In this document: positions 23,750 to 64,000 of the stretch, piece after piece
Numbering within the stretch: position 1 is the stretch's first letter
How the letters are laid out: each line of letters begins with the position of its first letter
IMG/VR virus record: IMGVR_UViG_3300033148_003679
Coordinates: 1-64,000 of that record
Strand: one strand, 5' to 3'
Source of the DNA: a virus
Length of the DNA: 64,000 nucleotides
Position numbers and translations under genes: made by a program
The notes under the pieces: generated by a model
What the model saw: only the letters and a program-made list of their open reading frames with translations
Told to the model about the DNA's origin: nothing
The model's database searches: none

Positions 23750-23764
23750 ATGTATATTCGTGAT

Positions 23765-23794
23765 TTAACTTTTTGATCTTATTTATGATATAAT
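23765..23794 (+). promoter_or_regulatory. Rightward promoter pointing into the ribonucleotide reductase 3' end
   Basis: TTAACT, 18-base spacer, TATAAT, surrounded by the same sequence as the 29.2 and 31.2 kb promoters (ACTTTTTGAT, then TTATGATATAATAGAT). It reads antisense to the reductase gene, with only a 15-codon reading frame (23845-23892, MARLIQRYRGELLVC) after it. Possible antisense control or a relic. Confidence 0.55.
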
Positions 23795-23928
23795 AGATTA
23801 GAAGTTGAATGCAGGGGAATGTTAGATAAAGAAAGAGAAGAGATATGGCAAGGTTAATACAGAGATATAGGGGTGAATTGTTGGTTTGTTAGTCTGCTGG
23901 TTTATTGGCCTGAAAGATTAGACTTGGT

Positions 23929-29050: not shown

Positions 29051-29220
29051 TTTCTGATTATTCCTCTCAAATATCGTCTTGTTTCTCTGCTCTTTTAACA
29101 AGAAAAATAGTAGCAAGGCGATGCTCGATGCCGTACACAGAAAGGAGGAGGAAAGAGTAGAGGGACATCACATAACCTTGCTACTATAATTATTTCCTAT
29201 GTACTACCTACGCATGATCT

Positions 29221-29250
29221 ATTATACCATAAACAAGAGCAAAAAGTCAA
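29221..29250 (-). promoter_or_regulatory. Leftward promoter for 29.05-26 kb genes
   Basis: Minus strand TTGACT (29245-29250), 18-base spacer, TATAAT (29221-29226) with TG before the -10. The leader continues with GCGTAGGTAGTACATAGG. Nearly identical to the promoter at 31.22 kb. Confidence 0.75.
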
Positions 29251-29417
29251 ATTACAACTATACCCGCACCCGCCACTATTACCGCTCTTTCCTGCGCACT
29301 CCTTGATAACTTCTTGCCATTGTTATCATTTGCCGCTGGGGCGAACAATCCTGTAGAAAATTTTTGGCCTATACAAAAAGCTGACAGAACAGTGAAAAAA
29401 GAGGTGGGGGTGAGTGA

Positions 29418-30023: not shown

Positions 30024-30046
30024 ACTTATTTAAACTCCTTTGTGGT

Positions 30047-30076
30047 CTGACTTTTTAATTTTGTTTATGGTATAAT
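30047..30076 (+). promoter_or_regulatory. Rightward promoter pointing into the D12 methyltransferase 3' end
   Basis: CTGACT, 18-base spacer, TATAAT, then CATACGTAGATAGTACACAGG. It is antisense to the methyltransferase gene and forms, with the promoter at 31219-31248, an inverted repeat of about 53 bases around that gene. Confidence 0.6.
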
Positions 30077-30107
30077 AGATCATACGTAGATAGTACACAG
30101 GCAAATT

Positions 30108-31196
30108 TCAGGATCCCTTTTCAAGTAAAAACAGGAACTCTTTATTAGGTTTCTGTACATCTCGTAACCATTGATTAGTCCATTTCATGCCTGCCATCAC
30201 ATTCTTCTTGTAGTCGAGTTCCACGACTTCCAGAACCTTGCCGTTACTTTGCAGAATATCGTTGAGTTCATTAGCTGTTGCTCGACCACCAGAACTGTAG
30301 GACAGGATGATCCACCGGGCTTGAGTTGTTTTAATCAATCTCTCGATTGCCTCGACTGCAATGAAACGCCCGCTGACGCTACGTCGAAAGTTCTCAAATA
30401 CAGATACAGCCACCTTGTCCGACGTGTCCTTGCGACGATTCGCCTTGCCGAACAAAACAGGCTTGTCGAAGAGGCAGATGCTCGTCCAGACGTGGTAGTA
30501 GGATGCATACCGGACTCGCGAAGGTGGCATCTTCTCGTTGTTCGATCCGTAGGGCGGGTCGAAGTAGGCAAGGTCTACGGACACACGTGGGACGAGATCA
30601 AAGATGTCACTTCGGAACACTTGGTGTTCTCGTGATGCCTTAAAGACATCCGGCACCTTGAGCATCAGTTCCTTGTATGAACGAGCAGACCAGTCCTTGA
30701 GATACGAAACGAAATGGCCAAGGGTATTATCCACCCGATCCAGTGCCAATATGAGACTGGTAAGAGCCACGGCCCGATCAACACCATCAAGATCGAGTGA
30801 GTCTATCTCCTGCCGGATAGCATCCAGTTTTCGCGTATTGTGTACTTGCCAAGGTTTCTTGAGACCGTCCTGCTGGACTGCACAGCCCCCGTTGGGTTTT
30901 CCACCGTAGTGCTCTGTGAACCAACCATCAACGGGGGATACGGCATTAAGATGAGCGATTAACTCCTGATACTGCCAGGGTTGTTTCTGATTGAGAAGAT
31001 AGCAGGTGCCAAAGACTTCCGACCAAACCGCAAGATCGTTGCACAGAACCCTATATCCAGACTTTGCTAAAGCCTGTGATACACGCGTAGTCCCAGAGAA
31101 TCCATCCAGTATCGTGCGCGCATTAACACGCTTAACAAGTTGAAGTATCTGCGGAATTAGCTTCGCTTTTGAACCTATATACTTAATACTTTCCAT
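30108..31196 (-). CDS. D12-class adenine-N6 DNA methyltransferase
   Basis: 362 aa. Starts MESIKYIGSKAKLIPQI (the YIGSK element that opens this class), then the SAM motif ILDGFSGTTRVSQALAKSGY and the catalytic FDPPYGSNN near residue 210. Length and order fit D12 enzymes such as those of type II systems. Its base composition is more GC-rich than its neighbours, suggesting transfer. No endonuclease is adjacent. The ATG lies directly at the end of the leader box, so the leader is very short. Confidence 0.88.
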   Translation of the reverse strand: MESIKYIGSKAKLIPQILQLVKRVNARTILDGFSGTTRVSQALAKSGYRVLCNDLAVWSEVFGTCYLLNQKQPWQYQELIAHLNAVSPVDGWFTEHYGGKPNGGCAVQQDGLKKPWQVHNTRKLDAIRQEIDSLDLDGVDRAVALTSLILALDRVDNTLGHFVSYLKDWSARSYKELMLKVPDVFKASREHQVFRSDIFDLVPRVSVDLAYFDPPYGSNNEKMPPSRVRYASYYHVWTSICLFDKPVLFGKANRRKDTSDKVAVSVFENFRRSVSGRFIAVEAIERLIKTTQARWIILSYSSGGRATANELNDILQSNGKVLEVVELDYKKNVMAGMKWTNQWLRDVQKPNKEFLFLLEKGS

Positions 31197-31218
31197 GTGT
31201 ACTACCTGCGCATGATCT

Positions 31219-31248
31219 ATTATACCATAAACAGAATCAAAAAGTCAA
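31219..31248 (-). promoter_or_regulatory. Leftward promoter of the D12 methyltransferase
   Basis: Minus strand TTGACT, 18-base spacer, TATAAT, then GATCATGCGCAGGTAGTACAC and the ATG. The leader is only about 15 bases. Confidence 0.75.
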
Positions 31249-31434
31249 AAACGCACTACAAATAAAACACTGCATATAAGACACTGCATACTGTAAATAA
31301 AGCACTTTATAAACAAGGTACTACCTGCAAATAAAGCACTATAACGCAATACGAAAAAGAATGCGGAGCGTCAAGTGGCTGGGGTTTGGGATTTGAGATG
31401 AGAATATGGGAGAGGGTGAATGGTCACCCCCCCC

Positions 31435-45232: not shown

Positions 45233-45406
45233 ATGTACTTGGCTAAAACAAGTACGGAACGGAAGGGTATGCGGCAAGTGTGTTGATGGACACTGGTAAA
45301 AAGATTTCGAGAAGAGAGAATGTTAGCTCAGTGATAAGAACCGGTATACGTACAATTAAGATATAATCTGGTATGAGCTATAGATTATTTATGCCGCATA
45401 CCCTTC
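45233..45406 (+). ncRNA. Structured leader RNA (candidate cis-regulatory element A)
   Basis: A GTACTTG/CAAGTAC hairpin (45233-45253) is followed by perfect 15-base arms GAAGGGTATGCGGCA (45262-45276) and TGCCGCATACCCTTC (45392-45406) that close a 115-base domain containing an AGTGT/ACACT hairpin. It lies between a promoter and the 45443 start. Not a tRNA. Confidence 0.55.
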
Positions 45407-45442
45407 TATACGTATAGGTGGCACACAGGTAGGGGTAATATA

Positions 45443-46027
45443 ATGAAAAGAAGCCGTCGAGATAAACGGAAACCGGCTGATAGAAAACCTGCACAGAAAA
45501 GGCGGGCTCAAAATCGTAAACGTGCAAAAACCGATCCGTATGGTGTAACCCGTCGTCTAATATATCTCGATCATATAAGTTGGGTACAGGCTGAACGGAT
45601 GGCATATGCAGCGCAACAGTACCTTACGTCACAGTATAGTACAAGTGTTCGGAACATTAGTGCAAGTGCTGTTGTACGTATGGCGTTAGACTTTCTCTTG
45701 GTTACGTATAATGGTGCAACTGATGTAGAGAAAGCCAAGATGTTGAACAAGTTGGGTGAACGAAGGCGAAATTCTAAATCTGTAGATGGAGAAAAAAGCA
45801 GGATGGGTAAAGAACGTTCGACCGAGATAAAGACAGAGAAAATAGATGTGCCAAGAAAAGACGATATAGACCGTGCGATTGAAATAAGCAGAAAAAGGGG
45901 GTTTATGCAAGAAGCTAAAAAAGAGATTAGACGTGACGGAGTAAGGATTAGTCGGCCTATTTCGCCGAATGAAAGCCATAAACGGAAATTTCCGGATTCG
46001 TTTATAAGACAGAAAGATGCAGATTGA
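45443..46027 (+). CDS. Basic protein, possible DNA-binding
   Basis: 194 aa. The first 35 residues are highly basic (MKRSRRDKRKPADRKPAQ), then a helical domain (RLIYLDHISWVQAERMAYAA) of ribbon-helix-helix-like shape, and a charged tail. A role on nucleic acid is likely. The gene follows structured leader A. Confidence 0.58.
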   Translation: MKRSRRDKRKPADRKPAQKRRAQNRKRAKTDPYGVTRRLIYLDHISWVQAERMAYAAQQYLTSQYSTSVRNISASAVVRMALDFLLVTYNGATDVEKAKMLNKLGERRRNSKSVDGEKSRMGKERSTEIKTEKIDVPRKDDIDRAIEISRKRGFMQEAKKEIRRDGVRISRPISPNESHKRKFPDSFIRQKDAD

Positions 46028-46053
46028 CAAACGATACTCTAATATGTTATAAT
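46024..46053 (+). promoter_or_regulatory. Early promoter with leader box and structured leader
   Basis: TTGACA, 18-base spacer, ATGTTATAATAG, then GTAGGTAGTACACAG. Leader continues to 46280. Confidence 0.75.
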
Positions 46054-46097
46054 AGATCGTGCGTAGGTAGTACACAGAAGATGTAAATGGTATACAG

Positions 46098-46253
46098 GAA
46101 CAGAGAATCGTCGCAAACTATTTCTTCTCATCTTCTAATACAAGTCGTCTCGATGCGGGTTAGCGGTTTTGCTCCTTTCCCGCTTGGGAAATGTTTTGTC
46201 CTCCCTTCATTTCCCATATAGCTGCATTTTGACGGCAAGGCGATTCTCTGTTC
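46098..46253 (+). ncRNA. Structured leader RNA (candidate cis-regulatory element B)
   Basis: Perfect 13-base arms GAACAGAGAATCG (46098-46110) and CGATTCTCTGTTC (46241-46253) enclose 130 bases. Inside, GGGAAA (46186-46191) can pair either with TTTCCC (46176-46181) or, as GGGAAATG, with CATTTCCC (46208-46215): a mutually exclusive, switch-like layout. It lies directly upstream of the nuclease start. Confidence 0.6.
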
Positions 46254-46280
46254 TGCTACACTATCATAAAAGAGAGGTAA

Positions 46281-47285
46281 ATGTTCGACATGGAATGTCC
46301 GTATAAAATACCTAGTACAACGAGTTTTTGTCATCATCATATACCAGACGACTCATTTCGGGACGCGCCCGGATTCTGTGCTGCCGGCCATCATTTTTTG
46401 TGTGAAGAAAGAGTTGCGAGTTGTACGTTGGTAATGAGCCAGTCACAAGTTAAAACGTATTATGAATGTAAAATGAAGTATTGGCTTCGGTACATATACG
46501 GGATCAGACGTAAAAAGAGTACACTTTCACCTGCTATAAAGATGGGCGCAATTTGGGACAAGTTTGTAGCGAGCAAATATAATGATATTGAGCTGAACCT
46601 TGAATCGTTATTGAAAGAGTATGCAGTAAAAGATGTTGATAGAGCTAAACTATGTGCGTTAATGGACGCATGGGATTCGTTGGAAATCAAGTTGAAACTT
46701 AACGGGTTCCTGTCATGTCAGGCAGAAGTAGCGCAACGGTTTGACCAGACAGATGGCCGACAGTTAATTGTACGCGGATATGTGGACAGACTTTATGATA
46801 CATGGTTTGCAGAAACTAAACTTACAAAAGATCCGAACAGATATGATAATATATGGGATTTACACAGTCAGATCGGTACATACTTTTTGTTAATGCCGAA
46901 CATTAACGAATGTGTTATGGAGATTACACGGACTCCGCAATTAAAACAAGGTAAACGGGAGACTATAGACGATTATTATAGAAGGATATTCGGAGATATT
47001 ATTGCACGTCCTGGCTTTTATTTTATAGGGTGGGACGCTAACACCCGACAGTTTGGCCGACCGCCATATTATCGGAACGAGATGCGGTTGGAAACGGTTA
47101 AAAACAGGTATAGATGGATAACGCAGGAGATTGCTGAAAGAACAGAACGGGGTACATGGTATTGTGAACAGGGCTATATATGTTCCCCTTATTATAGAGA
47201 TTGTGACTATAAACCTGTATGCGTAATCGGCGGTGTAGGCCATGGAGTAAACGAAGTGTTGTACGAGAGACAGAAAAGGAGATGA
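46281..47285 (+). CDS. PD-(D/E)XK nuclease, RecB/Cas4-like
   Basis: 334 aa. Core SQSQVKTYYECKMKYWLRYI, then IVRGYVDRLYDTWFAETKLT where Asp-Arg and Glu-Thr-Lys are the nuclease triad, then HSQIGTYF. The C-terminus holds a Cys group (GYICSPYYRDCDYKPVC) like the Fe-S/zinc site of RecB/Cas4. The N-terminal 45 residues carry extra Cys/His. It precedes a Sak4-like ATPase, so it fits a recombination/end-processing role. The gene ends AGATGA, overlapping tatA. Confidence 0.78.
   Translation: MFDMECPYKIPSTTSFCHHHIPDDSFRDAPGFCAAGHHFLCEERVASCTLVMSQSQVKTYYECKMKYWLRYIYGIRRKKSTLSPAIKMGAIWDKFVASKYNDIELNLESLLKEYAVKDVDRAKLCALMDAWDSLEIKLKLNGFLSCQAEVAQRFDQTDGRQLIVRGYVDRLYDTWFAETKLTKDPNRYDNIWDLHSQIGTYFLLMPNINECVMEITRTPQLKQGKRETIDDYYRRIFGDIIARPGFYFIGWDANTRQFGRPPYYRNEMRLETVKNRYRWITQEIAERTERGTWYCEQGYICSPYYRDCDYKPVCVIGGVGHGVNEVLYERQKRR
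47248..47270 (+). repeat. 23-bp direct repeat, left copy, flanking the Tat cassette
   Basis: TAAACGAAGTGTTGTACGAG plus three bases, inside the nuclease 3' end; identical copy at 47887-47909. It borders the tatA and Tat-substrate genes. Confidence 0.9.
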
Positions 47286-48202: not shown

Positions 48203-49021
48203 ATGGAATTCATTTCTGGCGTAGACATACAAGAGTCAACTGGTTTGTTCGCGTTCATATACGGTGGTACAGGGGTTGGTAAATCCACTTCATTGATCCA
48301 ATCGTTACCAGACCCGATCCTCTATATCATGACCGAACCACGTGACCCGGCAGCGTTCCAGGCGGCAGCTAACAGACCGGGCGTAGAGATATATTATGGC
48401 CAATACGAAAACTGGTACGATTTAATAAATCTTACTGCAAACCCATCGAATTTTGACGGGTATAATTCCGTTGTAGTAGATTCTATTACGTATCTAATGA
48501 AAGTGCGGCTTACAGGCGAGATAACTAACGAGAGTTATGAAGCGTTGCCGGCAGACAAAAAGTCGCGCCGTTCTCTTGTAACACAGACTCGTATGGCTCT
48601 TGACGATTGGGGCGGTATGGCAAATCAGATGTTCCGGTTGTTTGAAGACTTGGGCACTCTGTCAACTACAGGTAAATGCGTTGTAGTTACGGCTTTACTT
48701 ACATCACATCCTAAATGGTCGCCACAACACGAATATGCACCTGCTCTTGCCGGAAACCAGTTTAGTGAAGGTATGCCGAGTGGTGTAGACCTGATCGGTT
48801 GGGTTCGGGACTCTAATGTGGTTGACCGGAATACAGGACAGAATACAGGTGAAATTACATGGCCGCCTATAGTAGATTTCAGGTCTAACGCAACTCATAT
48901 CGGTAAATGGACTGGTATACGGCCACAAACCGGTGTGATATTTTACTTGAACATGAAAGATATTATAGAGGCTAAAGGGTGCGAGTTTAAAAGTGCAACA
49001 GAAATAGGCCGACCGTTATAG
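48203..49021 (+). CDS. Sak4-like AAA/RecA-type ATPase (recombination mediator)
   Basis: 272 aa. Walker A GGTGVGKST at residues 21-29, Walker B VVVDS near 90-94, followed by a conserved Gln-rich sensor region and TTGKCVVVTALLTSHP. The size and order fit phage single-strand annealing/recombinase proteins of the Sak4 type and the AAA_24 group. It follows nuclease and precedes the ssDNA-binding-like gene, the usual recombination module. Expected to load or act on ssDNA. Confidence 0.8.
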   Translation: MEFISGVDIQESTGLFAFIYGGTGVGKSTSLIQSLPDPILYIMTEPRDPAAFQAAANRPGVEIYYGQYENWYDLINLTANPSNFDGYNSVVVDSITYLMKVRLTGEITNESYEALPADKKSRRSLVTQTRMALDDWGGMANQMFRLFEDLGTLSTTGKCVVVTALLTSHPKWSPQHEYAPALAGNQFSEGMPSGVDLIGWVRDSNVVDRNTGQNTGEITWPPIVDFRSNATHIGKWTGIRPQTGVIFYLNMKDIIEAKGCEFKSATEIGRPL

Positions 49022-54270: not shown

Positions 54271-54444
54271 ATGCTGGGTTTTCCTTACTTTTGTCTACAG
54301 AGAATAGTAGTTGTAAACTTAAGCGAGAAGTTAGATAACTTGGCCGATACATGTTATATAACAACGGCGAAATGTTTACCTGTCTGTAACCAAGAAAAAG
54401 GGTGGATGTCTGTCAATAGTAAACCAGGAGAAATAGCAGGGTGA
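54271..54444 (+). CDS. Small hypothetical protein before the helicase
   Basis: 57 aa from ATG 54271 (MLGFPYFCLQRIVVVNLSEK), with two Cys-x3-Cys type pairs later. It overlaps the helicase start by four bases, which supports coupling. Ribosome site AGGAAGG at about 18 bases. Confidence 0.42.
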   Translation: MLGFPYFCLQRIVVVNLSEKLDNLADTCYITTAKCLPVCNQEKGWMSVNSKPGEIAG

Positions 54445-59885: not shown

Positions 59886-60098
59886 ATGAGCAAACCGAAA
59901 CCAGAAGAGACGTTGAGCGACGGGACGGTCGTGGTGCTTGAGGGTTACACATGGCGTAGAGCTTTGTACGATGATGGTTATGGTGCGCTACGAATCGACG
60001 AACAGGCTGCGGAATCGGCATGTGATGCAGACGAACAAGTTGTAGAAGTCTGGGTAGCAAAGGCAGAGGCGAATGAAGAGAAGGAGGCAGAGACATGA
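59886..60098 (+). CDS. Small acidic protein
   Basis: 70 aa with GAAGGAGAGAACG. Contains DGTVVVLEGYTWRRALYDDG and a Glu/Ala-rich tail. Not recognised. Confidence 0.52.
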   Translation: MSKPKPEETLSDGTVVVLEGYTWRRALYDDGYGALRIDEQAAESACDADEQVVEVWVAKAEANEEKEAET

Positions 60099-60469
60099 AG
60101 ATTAAAGAGGGATTAGACGCGGATTGGCAACAATACGTTGAAGTTAATAGCGATCTTTATGGATCTGCTACTGTACAGTATGCTCAACGGTGGGCAGAAC
60201 TGATGGAAGAACGAATGAGTGCCGGTGAATCCATCGCAGAGGGAATGGCTAAAGAAACTTCGCATGCGGCAGATACGGATGGGATTACAGTTTTTATGTA
60301 TGGTGCCGCTGTAAGTATCTTGTCCCATTTCTGGGAGTACGGAGAAGAGTTGCGGCAATGGCATAACCTTTCCACTCAAATTGGTGATGAGGGCGAGAAA
60401 GCGAATGAAGATGGAGAGGTTTTGAATCCAGCGTTGTTAAGTTTTGGAAAGGCAAACGCGAGCAAGTAA
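60095..60469 (+). CDS. Hypothetical protein
   Basis: 124 aa overlapping the previous gene by one codon (ATGA). Helical, DADWQQYVEVNSDLYGSATV. Acidic. Ribosome site GAAGGAGGCAGAG. No family recognised. Confidence 0.55.
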   Translation: MKIKEGLDADWQQYVEVNSDLYGSATVQYAQRWAELMEERMSAGESIAEGMAKETSHAADTDGITVFMYGAAVSILSHFWEYGEELRQWHNLSTQIGDEGEKANEDGEVLNPALLSFGKANASK

Positions 60470-60481
60470 GGAGATCGAGAA

Positions 60482-61039
60482 ATGAAGAAGTCGAAAGTTG
60501 TAGTGATAGGTGTTGCAGTTCTGGTTGGAGCGGTGCTTGGATTTGGCTGGGCGTGGCTGCCGGGCGGGTTGGAGTATCGGGCTGCCCAGGCGCAAGCCGA
60601 ACCAGAGTTGCCGGCCAACACGAAACTGACAAGTCAGGCGGTCGATATTGTCGTTCGGGTCGCTGCCGATCTGTCAGCCCGATATGACGTCGATAAAGTC
60701 AACATCTATGTTCAGCCGCTCGGCGGCGACTGGGAACTGATATACACGGAAGAAAACGTGTTGCCAGGCGATGAGGTGCCGTTTACCGTCAATATGGCTG
60801 AAGGTACAGTCTGGTTGGTTGGCGCGACGTTGGTTGACCCCGCAGGCAAAGAAAGTGTGATGAAAGGTACATTGCGTTATCCCGGACAAGACGAGCCTCT
60901 GTACCTAGAATGGGACACGACTCCGCCGCCAGCACCTGATGTACTGTTACTTGGCTCGGCAGACGTGAACGGCGACAAGTTTGTGAACGCTATTGACATC
61001 CAGCTTGTAATCAACGCGGTATTGGGATACGTTGCGTAA
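60482..61039 (+). CDS. Secreted protein with a C-terminal dockerin-like half-domain
   Basis: 185 aa. Residues 1-39 are a signal peptide: a basic start, a hydrophobic core (VVVIGVAVLVGAVLGFGWAW) and a cut after AQAQA. A beta domain follows (residues 45-140). The C-terminal 26 residues, ADVNGDKFVNAIDIQLVINA, carry the dockerin calcium loop DxNxDxxxxxxD and helix; only one of the usual two. Dockerins dock to cohesins in extracellular complexes. Phage dockerins are rare, so this may be a captured host gene. Confidence 0.72.
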   Translation: MKKSKVVVIGVAVLVGAVLGFGWAWLPGGLEYRAAQAQAEPELPANTKLTSQAVDIVVRVAADLSARYDVDKVNIYVQPLGGDWELIYTEENVLPGDEVPFTVNMAEGTVWLVGATLVDPAGKESVMKGTLRYPGQDEPLYLEWDTTPPPAPDVLLLGSADVNGDKFVNAIDIQLVINAVLGYVA

Positions 61040-61246: not shown

Positions 61247-61318
61247 GGAATAGACACCGATAAACATAGCGGCGGTTGACATCCAACTCGTAATCAACGC
61301 TGCACTGGGGTACGCGTA
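61247..61318 (+). pseudogene. Dockerin relic 1
   Basis: After the 56-residue gene the DNA resembles the dockerin end: GTTGACATCCAACTCGTAAT then CAACGCT(G), giving AVDIQLVINAALGYA in one frame, but the calcium loop is out of frame (N-G-I-D-T-D) and 7 bases longer. No start or ribosome site. It is a decayed copy of the end of the 60482 gene. Confidence 0.6.
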
Positions 61319-61415
61319 AATAATGATTCTGTTTTACGAACAATGGTGACCGGCTTCGCCAACTGACGTTCACATTAGACTGAACCCGTTGTTCGCGCAT
61401 AAAAAGGAGAGACTC

Positions 61416-61895
61416 ATGATGCGGTATATCATAACGCAAGCGCATCTTGACGCTGCTCGAAACGCACATGCATGCGAGTCCAGGCTGAACCTATACCATG
61501 CTGGCGACAACCTGTTTGACAAACTGACGTACGACGATGCGGTTTGGATTGAAGATAATTTGCCGGGCAATGCAAAATCGATATTGAATGCTTTCGGCGT
61601 ACCGCTTTACGCTATGGCGCGCGACGGCTGCGGCTACGGCCACGGTTACGGCTACGGCGACGGCAATGGCTATGGCTATGGTTACAGCTCCGGCGACGGT
61701 TACGGCTACGGCTATGGCTATGGCTACGGCGACGGCTCCGGCTCCGGCTCCGGCGACGGTTACGGCTACGGCTATGGCGACGGCTACAGCTCCGGTTCCG
61801 GCTTCGGTTCCGGCTTCGGCCACGGCTCCGGCTCCGGCTACGGCTATGGCGACGGCTATGGCGACGGCTACGGCTATAGCTACTGCGACAATTAA
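61416..61895 (+). CDS. Gly/Tyr-repeat protein, copy 1
   Basis: 159 aa from ATG 61416 behind AAAAAGGAGAG. Residues 1-70 form a helical head (RYIITQAHLDAARNAHACES; LFDKLTYDDAVWIEDNL; ending PLYAMARDG). Residues 70-159 are a low-complexity run of GYG, GDG, GSG units, probably disordered or adhesive. Nearly identical head to the 62297 gene. A dockerin relic follows the stop. Confidence 0.65.
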   Translation: MMRYIITQAHLDAARNAHACESRLNLYHAGDNLFDKLTYDDAVWIEDNLPGNAKSILNAFGVPLYAMARDGCGYGHGYGYGDGNGYGYGYSSGDGYGYGYGYGYGDGSGSGSGDGYGYGYGDGYSSGSGFGSGFGHGSGSGYGYGDGYGDGYGYSYCDN

Positions 61896-61935
61896 CATCG
61901 GGTTTGTGATCAACGCGGTGCCGGGATGGGTATAG
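61896..61935 (+). pseudogene. Dockerin relic 2
   Basis: Just after the copy-1 stop, the +1 frame reads TINIGFVINAVPGWV. ATCAACGCGGT is exact to the dockerin end of the 60482 gene. Lies out of frame with the Gly/Tyr tail. Confidence 0.55.
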
Positions 61936-61994
61936 GCGACACGTTGGATGATAATGTTGTTGGACGAAACAAAACGAACATGAGGAGACAAACG

Positions 61995-62291
61995 ATGACT
62001 AACAAAAAGAGACATGTAATTGTGACCACAGACTCTAGCCGACGAGGGGTATTTTTCGGAACGCTCAAATCGGGTGATGTCGGTAGCCCGGTAGAGTTGA
62101 CAGATGCTCGGATGATCGTCTATTGGTCTGCCGCCACACATGGGGTACTTGGCTTGGCGGCGACAGGCCCGGCAGATGGGTCGAGAGTGGGGCCCAGTGT
62201 ACCACAAATCCGGCTCGATGGTGTAACGGCGATCATCGAGTGTACACCAGAAGCTGTTGCACGATTTGCAAGCGGTGAACTCTGGAGTTGA
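61995..62291 (+). CDS. DUF6948-like conserved phage protein
   Basis: 98 aa from ATG 61995 behind GAGGAGACAAACG. VIVTTDSSRRGVFFGTLKSG, then LTDARMIVYWS and LGLAATGPADGSRVG, then IIECTPEAV. This matches a widespread phage protein whose role is unknown to me. Confidence 0.65.
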   Translation: MTNKKRHVIVTTDSSRRGVFFGTLKSGDVGSPVELTDARMIVYWSAATHGVLGLAATGPADGSRVGPSVPQIRLDGVTAIIECTPEAVARFASGELWS

Positions 62292-62296
62292 AAACG

Positions 62297-62662
62297 ATGA
62301 TGCGATACATCATAACGCAGGCGGATATTGACGCTGCCAGAACAGCACGTGCATGTGAAAATAGACTGAACCTATACCATGTTGGCGACGATCTGTTTGA
62401 CAAGCTGACGTATACAGATGCAGTCTGGATCGAAGATAAATTGCCGGACAGTGCAAAAACGATATTGAATGCTTTTAGCGTACCGCTTTACGCTATGGCG
62501 CGCGACGGCTGCGGCGACGGCTTCGGCTACGGCGACGGCTCCGGCTTCGGCTTCGGCTATGGCTACAGCTCCGGTTCCGGCTTCGGCTCCGGCTTCGGCT
62601 ACGGCTACAGCGACGGTTCTGGCGACGGCTTCGGCCACGGCTACGGCAGCGGCGACAATTAA
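62297..62662 (+). CDS. Gly/Tyr-repeat protein, copy 2
   Basis: 121 aa from ATG 62297, behind CTCTGGAG. The head RYIITQADIDAARTARACEN, then LFDKLTYTDAVWIEDKL, is about four-fifths identical to copy 1. The Gly-rich tail is shorter (about 45 residues) and Phe replaces many Tyr. Tandem duplication with tail divergence. A dockerin relic follows its stop. Confidence 0.65.
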   Translation: MMRYIITQADIDAARTARACENRLNLYHVGDDLFDKLTYTDAVWIEDKLPDSAKTILNAFSVPLYAMARDGCGDGFGYGDGSGFGFGYGYSSGSGFGSGFGYGYSDGSGDGFGHGYGSGDN

Positions 62663-62702
62663 CATCGGGTTTGTGATCAACGCGGTGCCGAGATGGGCAT
62701 AG
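62650..62702 (+). pseudogene. Dockerin relic 3
   Basis: GCGACAATTAACATCGGGTT then GTGATCAACGCGGTGCCGAG: near-identical to relic 2 and overlapping the end of copy 2. Reads TINIGFVINAVPRWA in another frame. Confidence 0.55.
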
Positions 62703-62716
62703 CATGAAAGGATGAA

Positions 62717-62971
62717 ATGATGGATTGGGAATATATAAATACTTGGGTACGGGCGATGTCTCAAGAGTTCGGCGGCATTGTGTATGATAAAGAAGACGGA
62801 AACAGACGCCTTGATTGGGGGCAAGCATTATGTCGCCAAGTGTTCGGGATTGATTGGATGAACAATCCTGCATGGCGAGATGCTGACAATTCGCCGACAG
62901 TTCCCCTTGAGGTATGGAAAGCTGCGAAAAAATGGCGTCATGGCGATTGGCCTGAATGGGCAGAGGTATAA
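62717..62971 (+). CDS. Small hypothetical protein
   Basis: 84 aa with GAAAGGATGAAATGATG. Trp-rich: WEYINTWVRAMSQEFGGIVY; PLEVWKAAKKWRHGDWPEWA. Not recognised. Followed by the AACTTTTGCAGCCAGCGG repeat. Confidence 0.55.
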   Translation: MMDWEYINTWVRAMSQEFGGIVYDKEDGNRRLDWGQALCRQVFGIDWMNNPAWRDADNSPTVPLEVWKAAKKWRHGDWPEWAEV

Positions 62972-62981
62972 ACCAATGAAA

Positions 62982-63145
62982 TAACTTTTGCAGCCAGCGG
63001 CGGCGCGATGGCGCGTCGGTAAGGGTATGCGCTCTTGCTATCAGGATTAGTGGTGCGACGACAGCCCATGTAAAGGTCGGAAAAGGCGTATACGTGAAGG
63101 GAAGTACGGTGGGGTAACCGTACCTGCTGGCCGCGCATGAAAGGA
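62982..63145. repeat. Intergenic repeat element, copy 1
   Basis: TAACTTTTGCAGCCAGCGG at 62982-63000 and CCTGCTGGCCGCGCATGAAA at 63123-63142. CAGCCAGC and GCTGGC are complementary, so the element can form a long hairpin or bubble; internal GC-rich. It sits between the 62717 and 63151 genes. Confidence 0.6.
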
Positions 63146-63150
63146 AACGG

Positions 63151-63324
63151 ATGATGATACAGACATTGAACGGAGTTTTAATTCCCGAAACCATAGCTGA
63201 GGCAGAGTTTCTATATGATGGGACAAACGATATTTCCGATCTCGACAATCCCGACAAGACATCTGCCGAGGCCGTAGCAAGACACCTTGCAGAACAAAAG
63301 GCAAAATACGGAATAAGAGACTGA
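63151..63324 (+). CDS. Small hypothetical protein
   Basis: 57 aa, MMIQTLNGVLIPETIAEAEF then an acidic loop and a helix ending KAKYGIRD. Ribosome site GAAAGGAAACG. It lies between two intergenic repeat elements. Confidence 0.55.
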   Translation: MMIQTLNGVLIPETIAEAEFLYDGTNDISDLDNPDKTSAEAVARHLAEQKAKYGIRD

Positions 63325-63328
63325 CCAT

Positions 63329-63407
63329 GCGGCCAGCGGCGATCTGGCATGTAGCACAATTCTAGATCGATGCTTGGCCAGATTCCTGCTGGCCGCGCAT
63401 GAAAGGA
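63329..63407. repeat. Intergenic repeat element, copy 2
   Basis: GCGGCCAGCGG at 63329 and CCTGCTGGCCGCGCATGAAA at 63385-63404, the latter identical to copy 1. ATGCGGCCAGC pairs with GCTGGCCGCGCAT. Followed by a leader like that of the 62717 gene. Confidence 0.6.
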
Positions 63408-63411
63408 TGAG

Positions 63412-63636
63412 ATGATGAGAAGAGATTTGATATTCAAAGTGCATGAGACTTGCCGAGATAAAAAATATCCAGGCGTAGCTGATCTTTTCGCTTTCAACGA
63501 AACTATTGATGCTGGGATTGGCAGTGCTTATACTTCAGTAACAATGGATCTTCTTGAAGATCTTGATACTGAACTTGCCACAAGAGTTATGGCTGGAGAG
63601 ACAATAAGATGTCGATTGGAAATTGTAACTGACTAA
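63412..63636 (+). CDS. Small hypothetical protein
   Basis: 74 aa, with GAAAGGATGAG before it. MMRRDLIFKVHETCRDKKYP, then acidic helix MDLLEDLDTELATRVMAG. Not recognised. Confidence 0.52.
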   Translation: MMRRDLIFKVHETCRDKKYPGVADLFAFNETIDAGIGSAYTSVTMDLLEDLDTELATRVMAGETIRCRLEIVTD

Positions 63637-63652
63637 CTTTTGCAGCCAGTGG
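63634..63652. repeat. Intergenic repeat element, copy 3 (partial)
   Basis: TAACTTTTGCAGCCAGTGG, one base different from copy 1. It overlaps the end of the preceding gene. Confidence 0.55.
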
Positions 63653-63692
63653 CAACGTATAAACTCAACGCGGCAAAAGAGGGGTGTACAGA

Positions 63693-63965
63693 ATGAGAAT
63701 AGCAACACTACCTAATTGCAGTGAATGTGGGCGATTTTGTATCCCACAAGATAGCGGCACAATGTATGGTAGTTATAATGATTATGAGCCGCCCGAAGAT
63801 GTTCTGTTGTGCCCACGTTGTGCCGATAGAAAGATGGCAGAAGCGATAAGGGCCCCCGCAACAATCATAGTCGGGTGTTGGTGGAGGAAACCGGATTATG
63901 TATCTGTAGCAAAAAGTATTTTACGCCACAGAAGGAAACATGGCAATGTTCAAGACCCTAAGTGA
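63693..63965 (+). CDS. Zinc-binding hypothetical protein
   Basis: 90 aa from ATG 63693. Cys pairs NCSECGRFCIPQDSG and LLCPRCADRK suggest a zinc ribbon; the rest is basic (LRHRRKHGNVQDPK). Ribosome site GAGGGGTGTACAG. Confidence 0.56.
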   Translation: MRIATLPNCSECGRFCIPQDSGTMYGSYNDYEPPEDVLLCPRCADRKMAEAIRAPATIIVGCWWRKPDYVSVAKSILRHRRKHGNVQDPK

Positions 63966-63999
63966 TACGAAGTATATTGGTGTTGACCCGGGATTGTAA
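63940..63999 (+). other. 19-codon frame ending at window edge, RuvC-like start?
   Basis: MAMFKTLSDTKYIGVDPGL then a TAA, behind AGAAGGAAAC. IGVDPGL is how RuvC/RNase H-fold resolvases often begin, yet the TAA ends the frame. Either chance, a base error, or a broken gene; the window stops one base later, so it cannot be decided. Confidence 0.25.
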
Positions 64000-64000
64000 C

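What the first reader, a model, noticed from the sequence alone, without database searches (positions are those of the whole stretch)
62982..63652. Gene-repeat-gene cassette structure at the right end
Seen: intergenic repeats with complementary CAGCCAGC/GCTGGC arms and an identical CCTGCTGGCCGCGCATGAAA leader separate small unrelated genes (62717, 63151, 63412, 63693). Inference: modular cassette array maintained by repeats, reminiscent in layout of integron cassettes or phage moron exchange, though attC hallmarks are missing.
Basis: seen in the sequence. Interest (0 to 1): 0.7.

Follow-up and report, generated by a model that had tools for sequence, protein, structure and literature searches.

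The report
Repeated hairpin leaders in phage genes
A bacterial virus carries several worn copies of one short DNA unit, a folded-back stem followed by a ribosome-binding site, in front of a row of tiny unrelated genes; similar gene-start repeats are known in other phages, so it is a new variant of a known arrangement and not a new kind of gene cassette system.

Summary
The window belongs to an 84,323-base phage record with a 114-base terminal repeat. Between 62.98 and 64.61 kb I find six whole or partial copies of one unit, all on the + strand, each between a stop codon and the start of the next small gene. The unit is a left arm (TGC[A/G]GCCAGCGGC), an unrelated interior, a right arm (C[C/T]GCTGGCCGC) and a leader GCATGAAAGG ending in ATGATG. 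Three copies have both arms (E1, E2, E4); three are broken (E3 left arm only, E5 right arm lost, E6 right end only). Genes and interiors are not related to each other. The 3' tail of one gene recurs as a fragment beside another copy, a trace of past recombination. No integrase, resolvase or Y1 transposase was found; a Sak4-like annealing protein is present. The only exact leader hits elsewhere, one in IMG/VR and four in genome contigs, look like chance. No relative covers the locus, so swaps cannot be tested. Best reading: a start-associated stem-loop leader, comparable to ESAS of cluster K mycobacteriophages but different in sequence, with a much longer interior and no promoter match. Cassette exchange is possible but unproven.

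The parts
62717..62971 (+). gA, 84-aa gene of unknown function; same GCATGAAAGG-ATGATG leader (62702-62722) but no hairpin
   Evidence: leader; no PHROGs match at 0.1, no phage tblastn match
62982..63144 (+). E1: complete unit, 146 nt between arm ends (62989-63134), then leader and gene gB
   Evidence: closing stem in the fold, whole-fold z -1.88
63151..63324 (+). gB, 57-aa gene of unknown function
   Evidence: no phage tblastn match
63325..63407 (+). E2: complete unit, 69 nt between arm ends, near-continuous long hairpin, then leader and gene gC
   Evidence: z -3.8; z -5.0, 0 of 200 shuffles as stable
63412..63636 (+). gC, 74-aa gene of unknown function
   Evidence: no relative in phages or viral contigs
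63622..63637 (+). 3' tail of gC (ATTGTAACTGACTAAC), recurring as a fragment 63993-64008 in front of E4
   Evidence: 15 of 16 identical, 0 of 1000 shuffles as good
63634..63653 (+). E3: left arm only, no right arm, no leader
63693..63965 (+). gD, 90-aa protein with paired cysteines (zinc-ribbon-like by eye); the one gene of the row without the leader
   Evidence: distant match in a 91,976-base viral record, 39% identity; no phage tblastn match
63993..64000 (+). Start of the gC-tail fragment before E4; E4 (64011-64137), E5 (64394-64422), E6 (about 64578-64593) and genes gE, gF (frame broken), gG lie past the window
48203..49021 (+). Sak4-like single-strand annealing protein; candidate driver of recombination between short repeats
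   Evidence: PHROG 124, E 3.5e-14

Best explanation
The repeats are copies of one start-associated leader: an inverted repeat that can close a stem, followed within 15-20 nt by a Shine-Dalgarno sequence and the start codon of a small non-structural gene. Shown: position, single orientation, the conserved arms and leader against unrelated interiors and genes, confinement to 1.6 kb. Inferred: in the polycistronic message the stem isolates each small gene from upstream ribosomes and gives a stable or processed 5' end next to its ribosome-binding site, so each gene is translated on its own. The copies spread by duplication and by homologous or annealing-driven recombination between themselves, which also explains the broken copies and the stray gene tail; that spread is a by-product, not a dedicated exchange system.
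For: Each copy lies between a stop and an ATG; in the three complete copies the right arm ends 15-20 nt before the start codon. The leader GCATGAAAGG or GTATGAAAGG precedes 6 of 7 genes in the row. Right arm plus leader is identical over 19 nt or more in the three complete copies while interiors are no more alike than shuffles (3 of 3 pairs) and 15 of 15 gene pairs show no clear relatedness. E2 folds far better than shuffles. A tail fragment of gC is duplicated before E4. Phages with repeated inverted repeats at gene starts in their right parts are described (PMC3203893; PMC7302621).
Against: Whole folds of E1 (z -1.88, 7 of 200 shuffles as good) and E4 (z -0.74, 40 of 200) are weak. There is no covariation set: with three complete copies the arm pairs hardly vary, and E1's left arm has a mismatch at the A of TGCAGCC. 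Perfect stems of 11 or more pairs occur at 10 places in the record, E4 being one, so a stem alone is not remarkable. E3, E5 and E6 lack a full stem although their genes remain. gD has no leader and gA no hairpin. No expression data exist.
Confidence: 0.5

Rival explanations
1. Recombination module like the PeSLs of T4-type phages: the units are dispersed homologies through which phages swap small genes between genomes, and carrying the expression signals makes any captured gene work at once.
For: Alternation of unrelated small genes with near-identical borders; E3 joins an E4-like upstream tail to an E1-like arm (and sequence), as expected from recombination; a Sak4-like annealing protein is encoded. 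Recombination between short repeats causing gene gain or loss is described for cluster O mycobacteriophages (PMC4351075).
Against: No relative with a different gene content at the same place was found. The shared borders are short (about 20 nt). No promoter-like site lies in the units on the + strand.
Confidence: 0.25
2. Remnants of plain tandem or segmental duplication in a region of little function, now decaying, without a role of their own.
For: Three of six copies are broken; neighbouring DNA is full of other duplications, such as a dockerin-tail fragment in 4 copies and a duplicated glycine-rich gene; gF has a broken frame.
Against: Arms and leader are nearly unchanged while interiors are unrelated, which uniform decay would not give; the genes between are not clear paralogs.
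Confidence: 0.15
3. Small non-autonomous mobile element with terminal inverted repeats (MITE or IS200/IS605-derived).
For: Terminal inverted repeats, several copies in one genome.
Against: All copies have the same orientation and shared flanks, including the ribosome-binding site; no Y1 transposase in the record; no convincing copies in the collections scanned.
Confidence: 0.06
4. Site-specific cassette array like an integron.
For: Gene-then-hairpin layout only.
Against: No tyrosine or serine recombinase found; the conserved part goes with the downstream start codon, not with the 3' end of a gene; no GTTRRRY core seen by eye (core recalled, not from a call).
Confidence: 0.03

Closest known systems
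[quoted passage not shown] PMC11373665 passages)
   Same: Short conserved motif at the ribosome-binding site of several non-structural genes; about half of them with an imperfect inverted repeat and variable spacer just upstream; almost always one orientation; restricted to the right half of the genome.
   Different: Sequences differ. ESAS spacers are mostly 4-13 bp; here the interiors are 43, 91 and 120 nt. ESAS of Adephagia contain SigA-like promoters; none is seen here. SAS occur 11-19 times per genome; here six whole or partial copies in one cluster.
Start-associated inverted repeats of Microbacterium clusters EF and EG (PMC7302621, passages)
   Same: Repeated motif upstream of start codons; in EG an 18-bp inverted repeat 14-22 bp before starts at the right genome end.
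   Different: EG repeats are compact palindromes (consensus with a 2-nt centre) without an interior.
PeSL elements of T4-type phages (Arbiol 2010, Comeau 2014: not held; known here from a passage in PMC4503421)
   Same: Stem-loop elements in regions of intense gene shuffling, credited with that shuffling.
   Different: PeSLs contain an early promoter; here no promoter match in the units and no exchange shown.
17-bp repeats of cluster O mycobacteriophages (PMC4351075, passages)
   Same: Dyad repeats; recombination between copies held to explain gene gain or loss.
   Different: 34 copies across the Corndog genome, about a third inside genes, not tied to start codons.

Membership tests
SAS/ESAS (cluster K mycobacteriophages) | 13-bp motif GGGATAGGAGCCC at the start codon | tested here: not met
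   Leader is GCATGAAAGG followed by ATGATG
SAS/ESAS (cluster K mycobacteriophages) | imperfect inverted repeat with variable spacer immediately upstream of the start motif | tested here: met
   E1, E2, E4, but spacers are much longer
SAS/ESAS (cluster K mycobacteriophages) | SigA-like promoter inside the ESAS (reported for Adephagia) | tested here: not met
   No + strand consensus match in the units; 7 in 7 kb against 7.7 expected; other promoter types not covered
PeSL (T4-type phages) | early promoter plus stem-loop | tested here: not met
   Stem present, sigma-70 promoter match absent
PeSL (T4-type phages) | different gene content between units in related phages | tested here: inconclusive
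   No relative covering the locus
Integron gene cassettes | tyrosine recombinase acting on the sites | tested here: not met
   PF00589 absent in the record, control 14 of 14; a recombinase in the host cannot be excluded
Integron gene cassettes | attC sites attached to the 3' end of each gene | tested here: not met
   The conserved part includes the ribosome-binding site of the downstream gene
IS200/IS605 or MITE elements | copies at unrelated flanks, transposase | tested here: not met
   Shared flanks; PF01797 absent, control 5 of 14
RNase III processing sites of T7 type | cleavage of an intergenic hairpin in the early message | not testable with these tools
   Needs RNA; hairpins predicted only
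Any Rfam family | match at gathering score | tested here: not met
   None in the window; in the array only one match with E up to 1, a microRNA model at E 0.81

The most novel reading that the evidence does not exclude
An integrase-free cassette system: hairpin-bordered leaders that carry their own ribosome-binding site serve as landing sites for annealing-driven capture of unrelated small genes, so that a captured gene is expressed at once.
Probability: 0.15. Interest if true: 0.6.

Novelty: new variant of a known kind. Interest (0 to 1): 0.3.

Why it matters
It adds a phage from a poorly sampled lineage to the genomes known to carry repeated inverted repeats at gene starts, here with long unrelated interiors between conserved arms. 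If the arms prove to be recombination borders, the array would let one test how phages gather small unique genes without an integrase.

Tried and rejected
Rfam families: no match in the window at gathering score, none in 44.9-46.4 kb, one chance microRNA match at E 0.81 over E2.

Elsewhere in public data: leader 18-mer in viral contigs, 1 hit (L006), with no second copy of the leader nearby; left-arm patterns, 0 hits; leader 19-mer in genome contigs, 4 hits, each a single isolated match, about what I estimate chance gives for that size of collection. DNA of 61390-64000 in phages matched only through the glycine-rich repeats, by the positions covered in the 20 of 138 rows shown; 62972-63690 in plasmids, none. 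Cassette proteins gA, gB, gC, gD, gE, gG in phages by tblastn: 0 of 6 with a match.

Relatives: the terminase finds 5 viral contigs (93 to 38% identity) of 7.5-27 kb; the left-arm core was in 0 of 6 records searched, these five and L006. The helicase at 54441 found none. The protein next to the array (64981-65733) is a common phage protein, 594 relatives, best 80 kept at 31-45% identity, too distant to compare the array. The record behind L096, a distant gD match, lacks this terminase; the 10-kb locus L096 shows no repeat of this kind among the families listed.

Covariation: a shared inner hairpin in E1 and E4 looked likely from the alignment, but the interiors match no better than shuffles, 842 of 1000; dropped.

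A rough scan for start-associated 12-mers in the 80 loci plus L004: 10 of 81 had a hit, L004 among them. I looked by eye at two of the nine others, L069 and L062.

Rows dropped: one search printed no pairs starting within 60 nt of each other and none inside the glycine-rich stretch; one search left out 61600-62660.

Full report
Setting. The window is bases 1-64000 of an 84,323-base virus record. Bases 1-114 and 84210-84323 are identical, as in a complete phage assembly. It encodes a portal protein, both terminase subunits, a ribonucleotide reductase and DNA methyltransferases, and a Sak4-like annealing protein. The nearest terminases in viral contigs are 93% identical but lie on fragments of about 11 kb; in the phage collection all 349 matching records are below 60%.

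The unit. I read the array past the window end. Six copies, whole or partial, lie between 62982 and about 64593: E1 62982-63144, E2 63325-63407, E3 63634-63653, E4 64011-64137, E5 64394-64422, E6 about 64578-64593. They are absent from the rest of the record by the searches made. E1, E2 and E4 have both arms, 146, 69 and 117 nt from end to end. Their interiors are 120, 43 and 91 nt and are no more alike than shuffled sequence in 3 of 3 pairs. E3 has only the left arm, E5 runs from the left arm into the leader, and E6 has only the right end and leader.

Position. All copies are on the + strand. In E1, E2 and E4 the right arm ends 15-20 nt before the start codon, and the bases between contain AAAGG, a plausible Shine-Dalgarno sequence, then ATGATG. 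The leader precedes 6 of 7 genes in the row: gA (without hairpin), gB, gC, gE, gF, gG; gD lacks it. Six intact proteins were compared with each other: of 15 pairs the best was reached by 32 of 500 shuffles, so none is clearly related. gF is broken by a frame change. None of the six has a convincing PHROGs match or Pfam match at the limits used.

Chance. The 23-nt identity between the E1 and E2 leaders would be expected about 5e-5 times in a random sequence of this length, and BLAST within the record gives 1.9e-6 for two further places. The arms as such are less remarkable: 10 perfect stems of 11 or more pairs occur in the record. E2 folds far better than shuffles, E1 moderately, E4 not, E3 and E5 not.

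Signs of rearrangement. I compared the 45 nt upstream of the left arm in five copies, ten pairs. E3 and E4 share ATTGTAACTGACT(A/G)AC (0 of 1000 shuffles as good). Before E3 this is the end of gC and its stop; before E4 it stands alone after the stop of gD, so it is probably a leftover gene tail. E1 and E5 share a weaker match (6 of 1000, marginal after ten tests). The remaining eight pairs are at 49 of 1000 or more. E3 joins an E4-like tail to an E1-like arm, which suggests recombination at the unit. This is a reading of short sequences.

Search for exchange. Pattern scans of viral contigs for the leader and both left-arm types gave one chance hit, none and none, and genome contigs gave four isolated hits. 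Protein searches with neighbours did not reach a relative of this locus. The record has no match to the families of tyrosine recombinases, Y1 transposases or serine resolvases.

Mechanism. The conserved part, arms plus leader, is what lies at the start codon; interiors and genes are free to differ. I take this as a leader that helps each small gene to be translated or its message to be processed (inferred). The recombination traces suggest that copies have moved or been duplicated, and a Sak4-like protein could anneal such short homologies (inferred). A sigma-70-like promoter is not seen in the units.

Known relatives in kind. [quoted passage not shown] the authors saw little support for RNA hairpins. 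PMC7302621 (passages) describes similar but unrelated motifs in Microbacterium clusters EF and EG, PMC4351075 (passages) recombination between repeats in cluster O, PMC11373665 (passages) promoters within ESAS, PMC12699233 (passages) a survey of 188 cluster K genomes. PeSLs were seen only through a passage in PMC4503421. The present unit is not a member of any of these by sequence; it occupies a similar place. I made six paper searches and saw no description of this unit in their listings; I did not search for its sequence in print.

Verdict. Real, and more than chance; a new variant of start-associated inverted-repeat leaders, with cassette exchange possible but unshown.

Noticed in passing
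45255-45412: Intergenic stretch closed by a 15-bp perfect stem (45262-45276 with 45392-45406), folding far better than shuffles (z -5.0), about 35 nt before a gene start at 45443; no Rfam match. Same layout as the units here but unrelated sequence.
   Followed up: partly
46092-46265: Second intergenic stretch closed by a long stem (13 bp perfect), z -6.3, just before the gene at 46281; no Rfam match.
   Followed up: partly
60482-61039: Phage gene with a dockerin type I C-terminal half (Pfam E 1.6e-5); its 3' tail recurs as three degraded fragments at 61276, 61892 and 62659.
   Followed up: partly
61416-61895 and 62297-62662: Duplicated gene (82% identical DNA over 300 nt) with a long Gly-Tyr/Ser/Asp repeat tail; the repeat DNA resembles genes of Rheinheimera, Iodobacter and Eggerthella phages.
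   Followed up: no
38633, 45172, 56346: Three copies of a TTGACAAAC...TATAATAG sequence, a likely sigma-70-type phage promoter.
   Followed up: no
29174-29251, 30040-30104, 31172-31249, 23752-23798, 46043-46077: Another intergenic repeat family in both orientations (81-91% identical).
   Followed up: no
60076-60461 and record 73281-73663 (-): A stretch duplicated in inverted orientation, 73.6% identical.
   Followed up: no
L069 407, 1015, 1240, 1880: Another viral contig with a repeated gene-start leader, TAGCC(A/C)ATAGGAGGCA followed by a start codon, four copies.
   Followed up: partly
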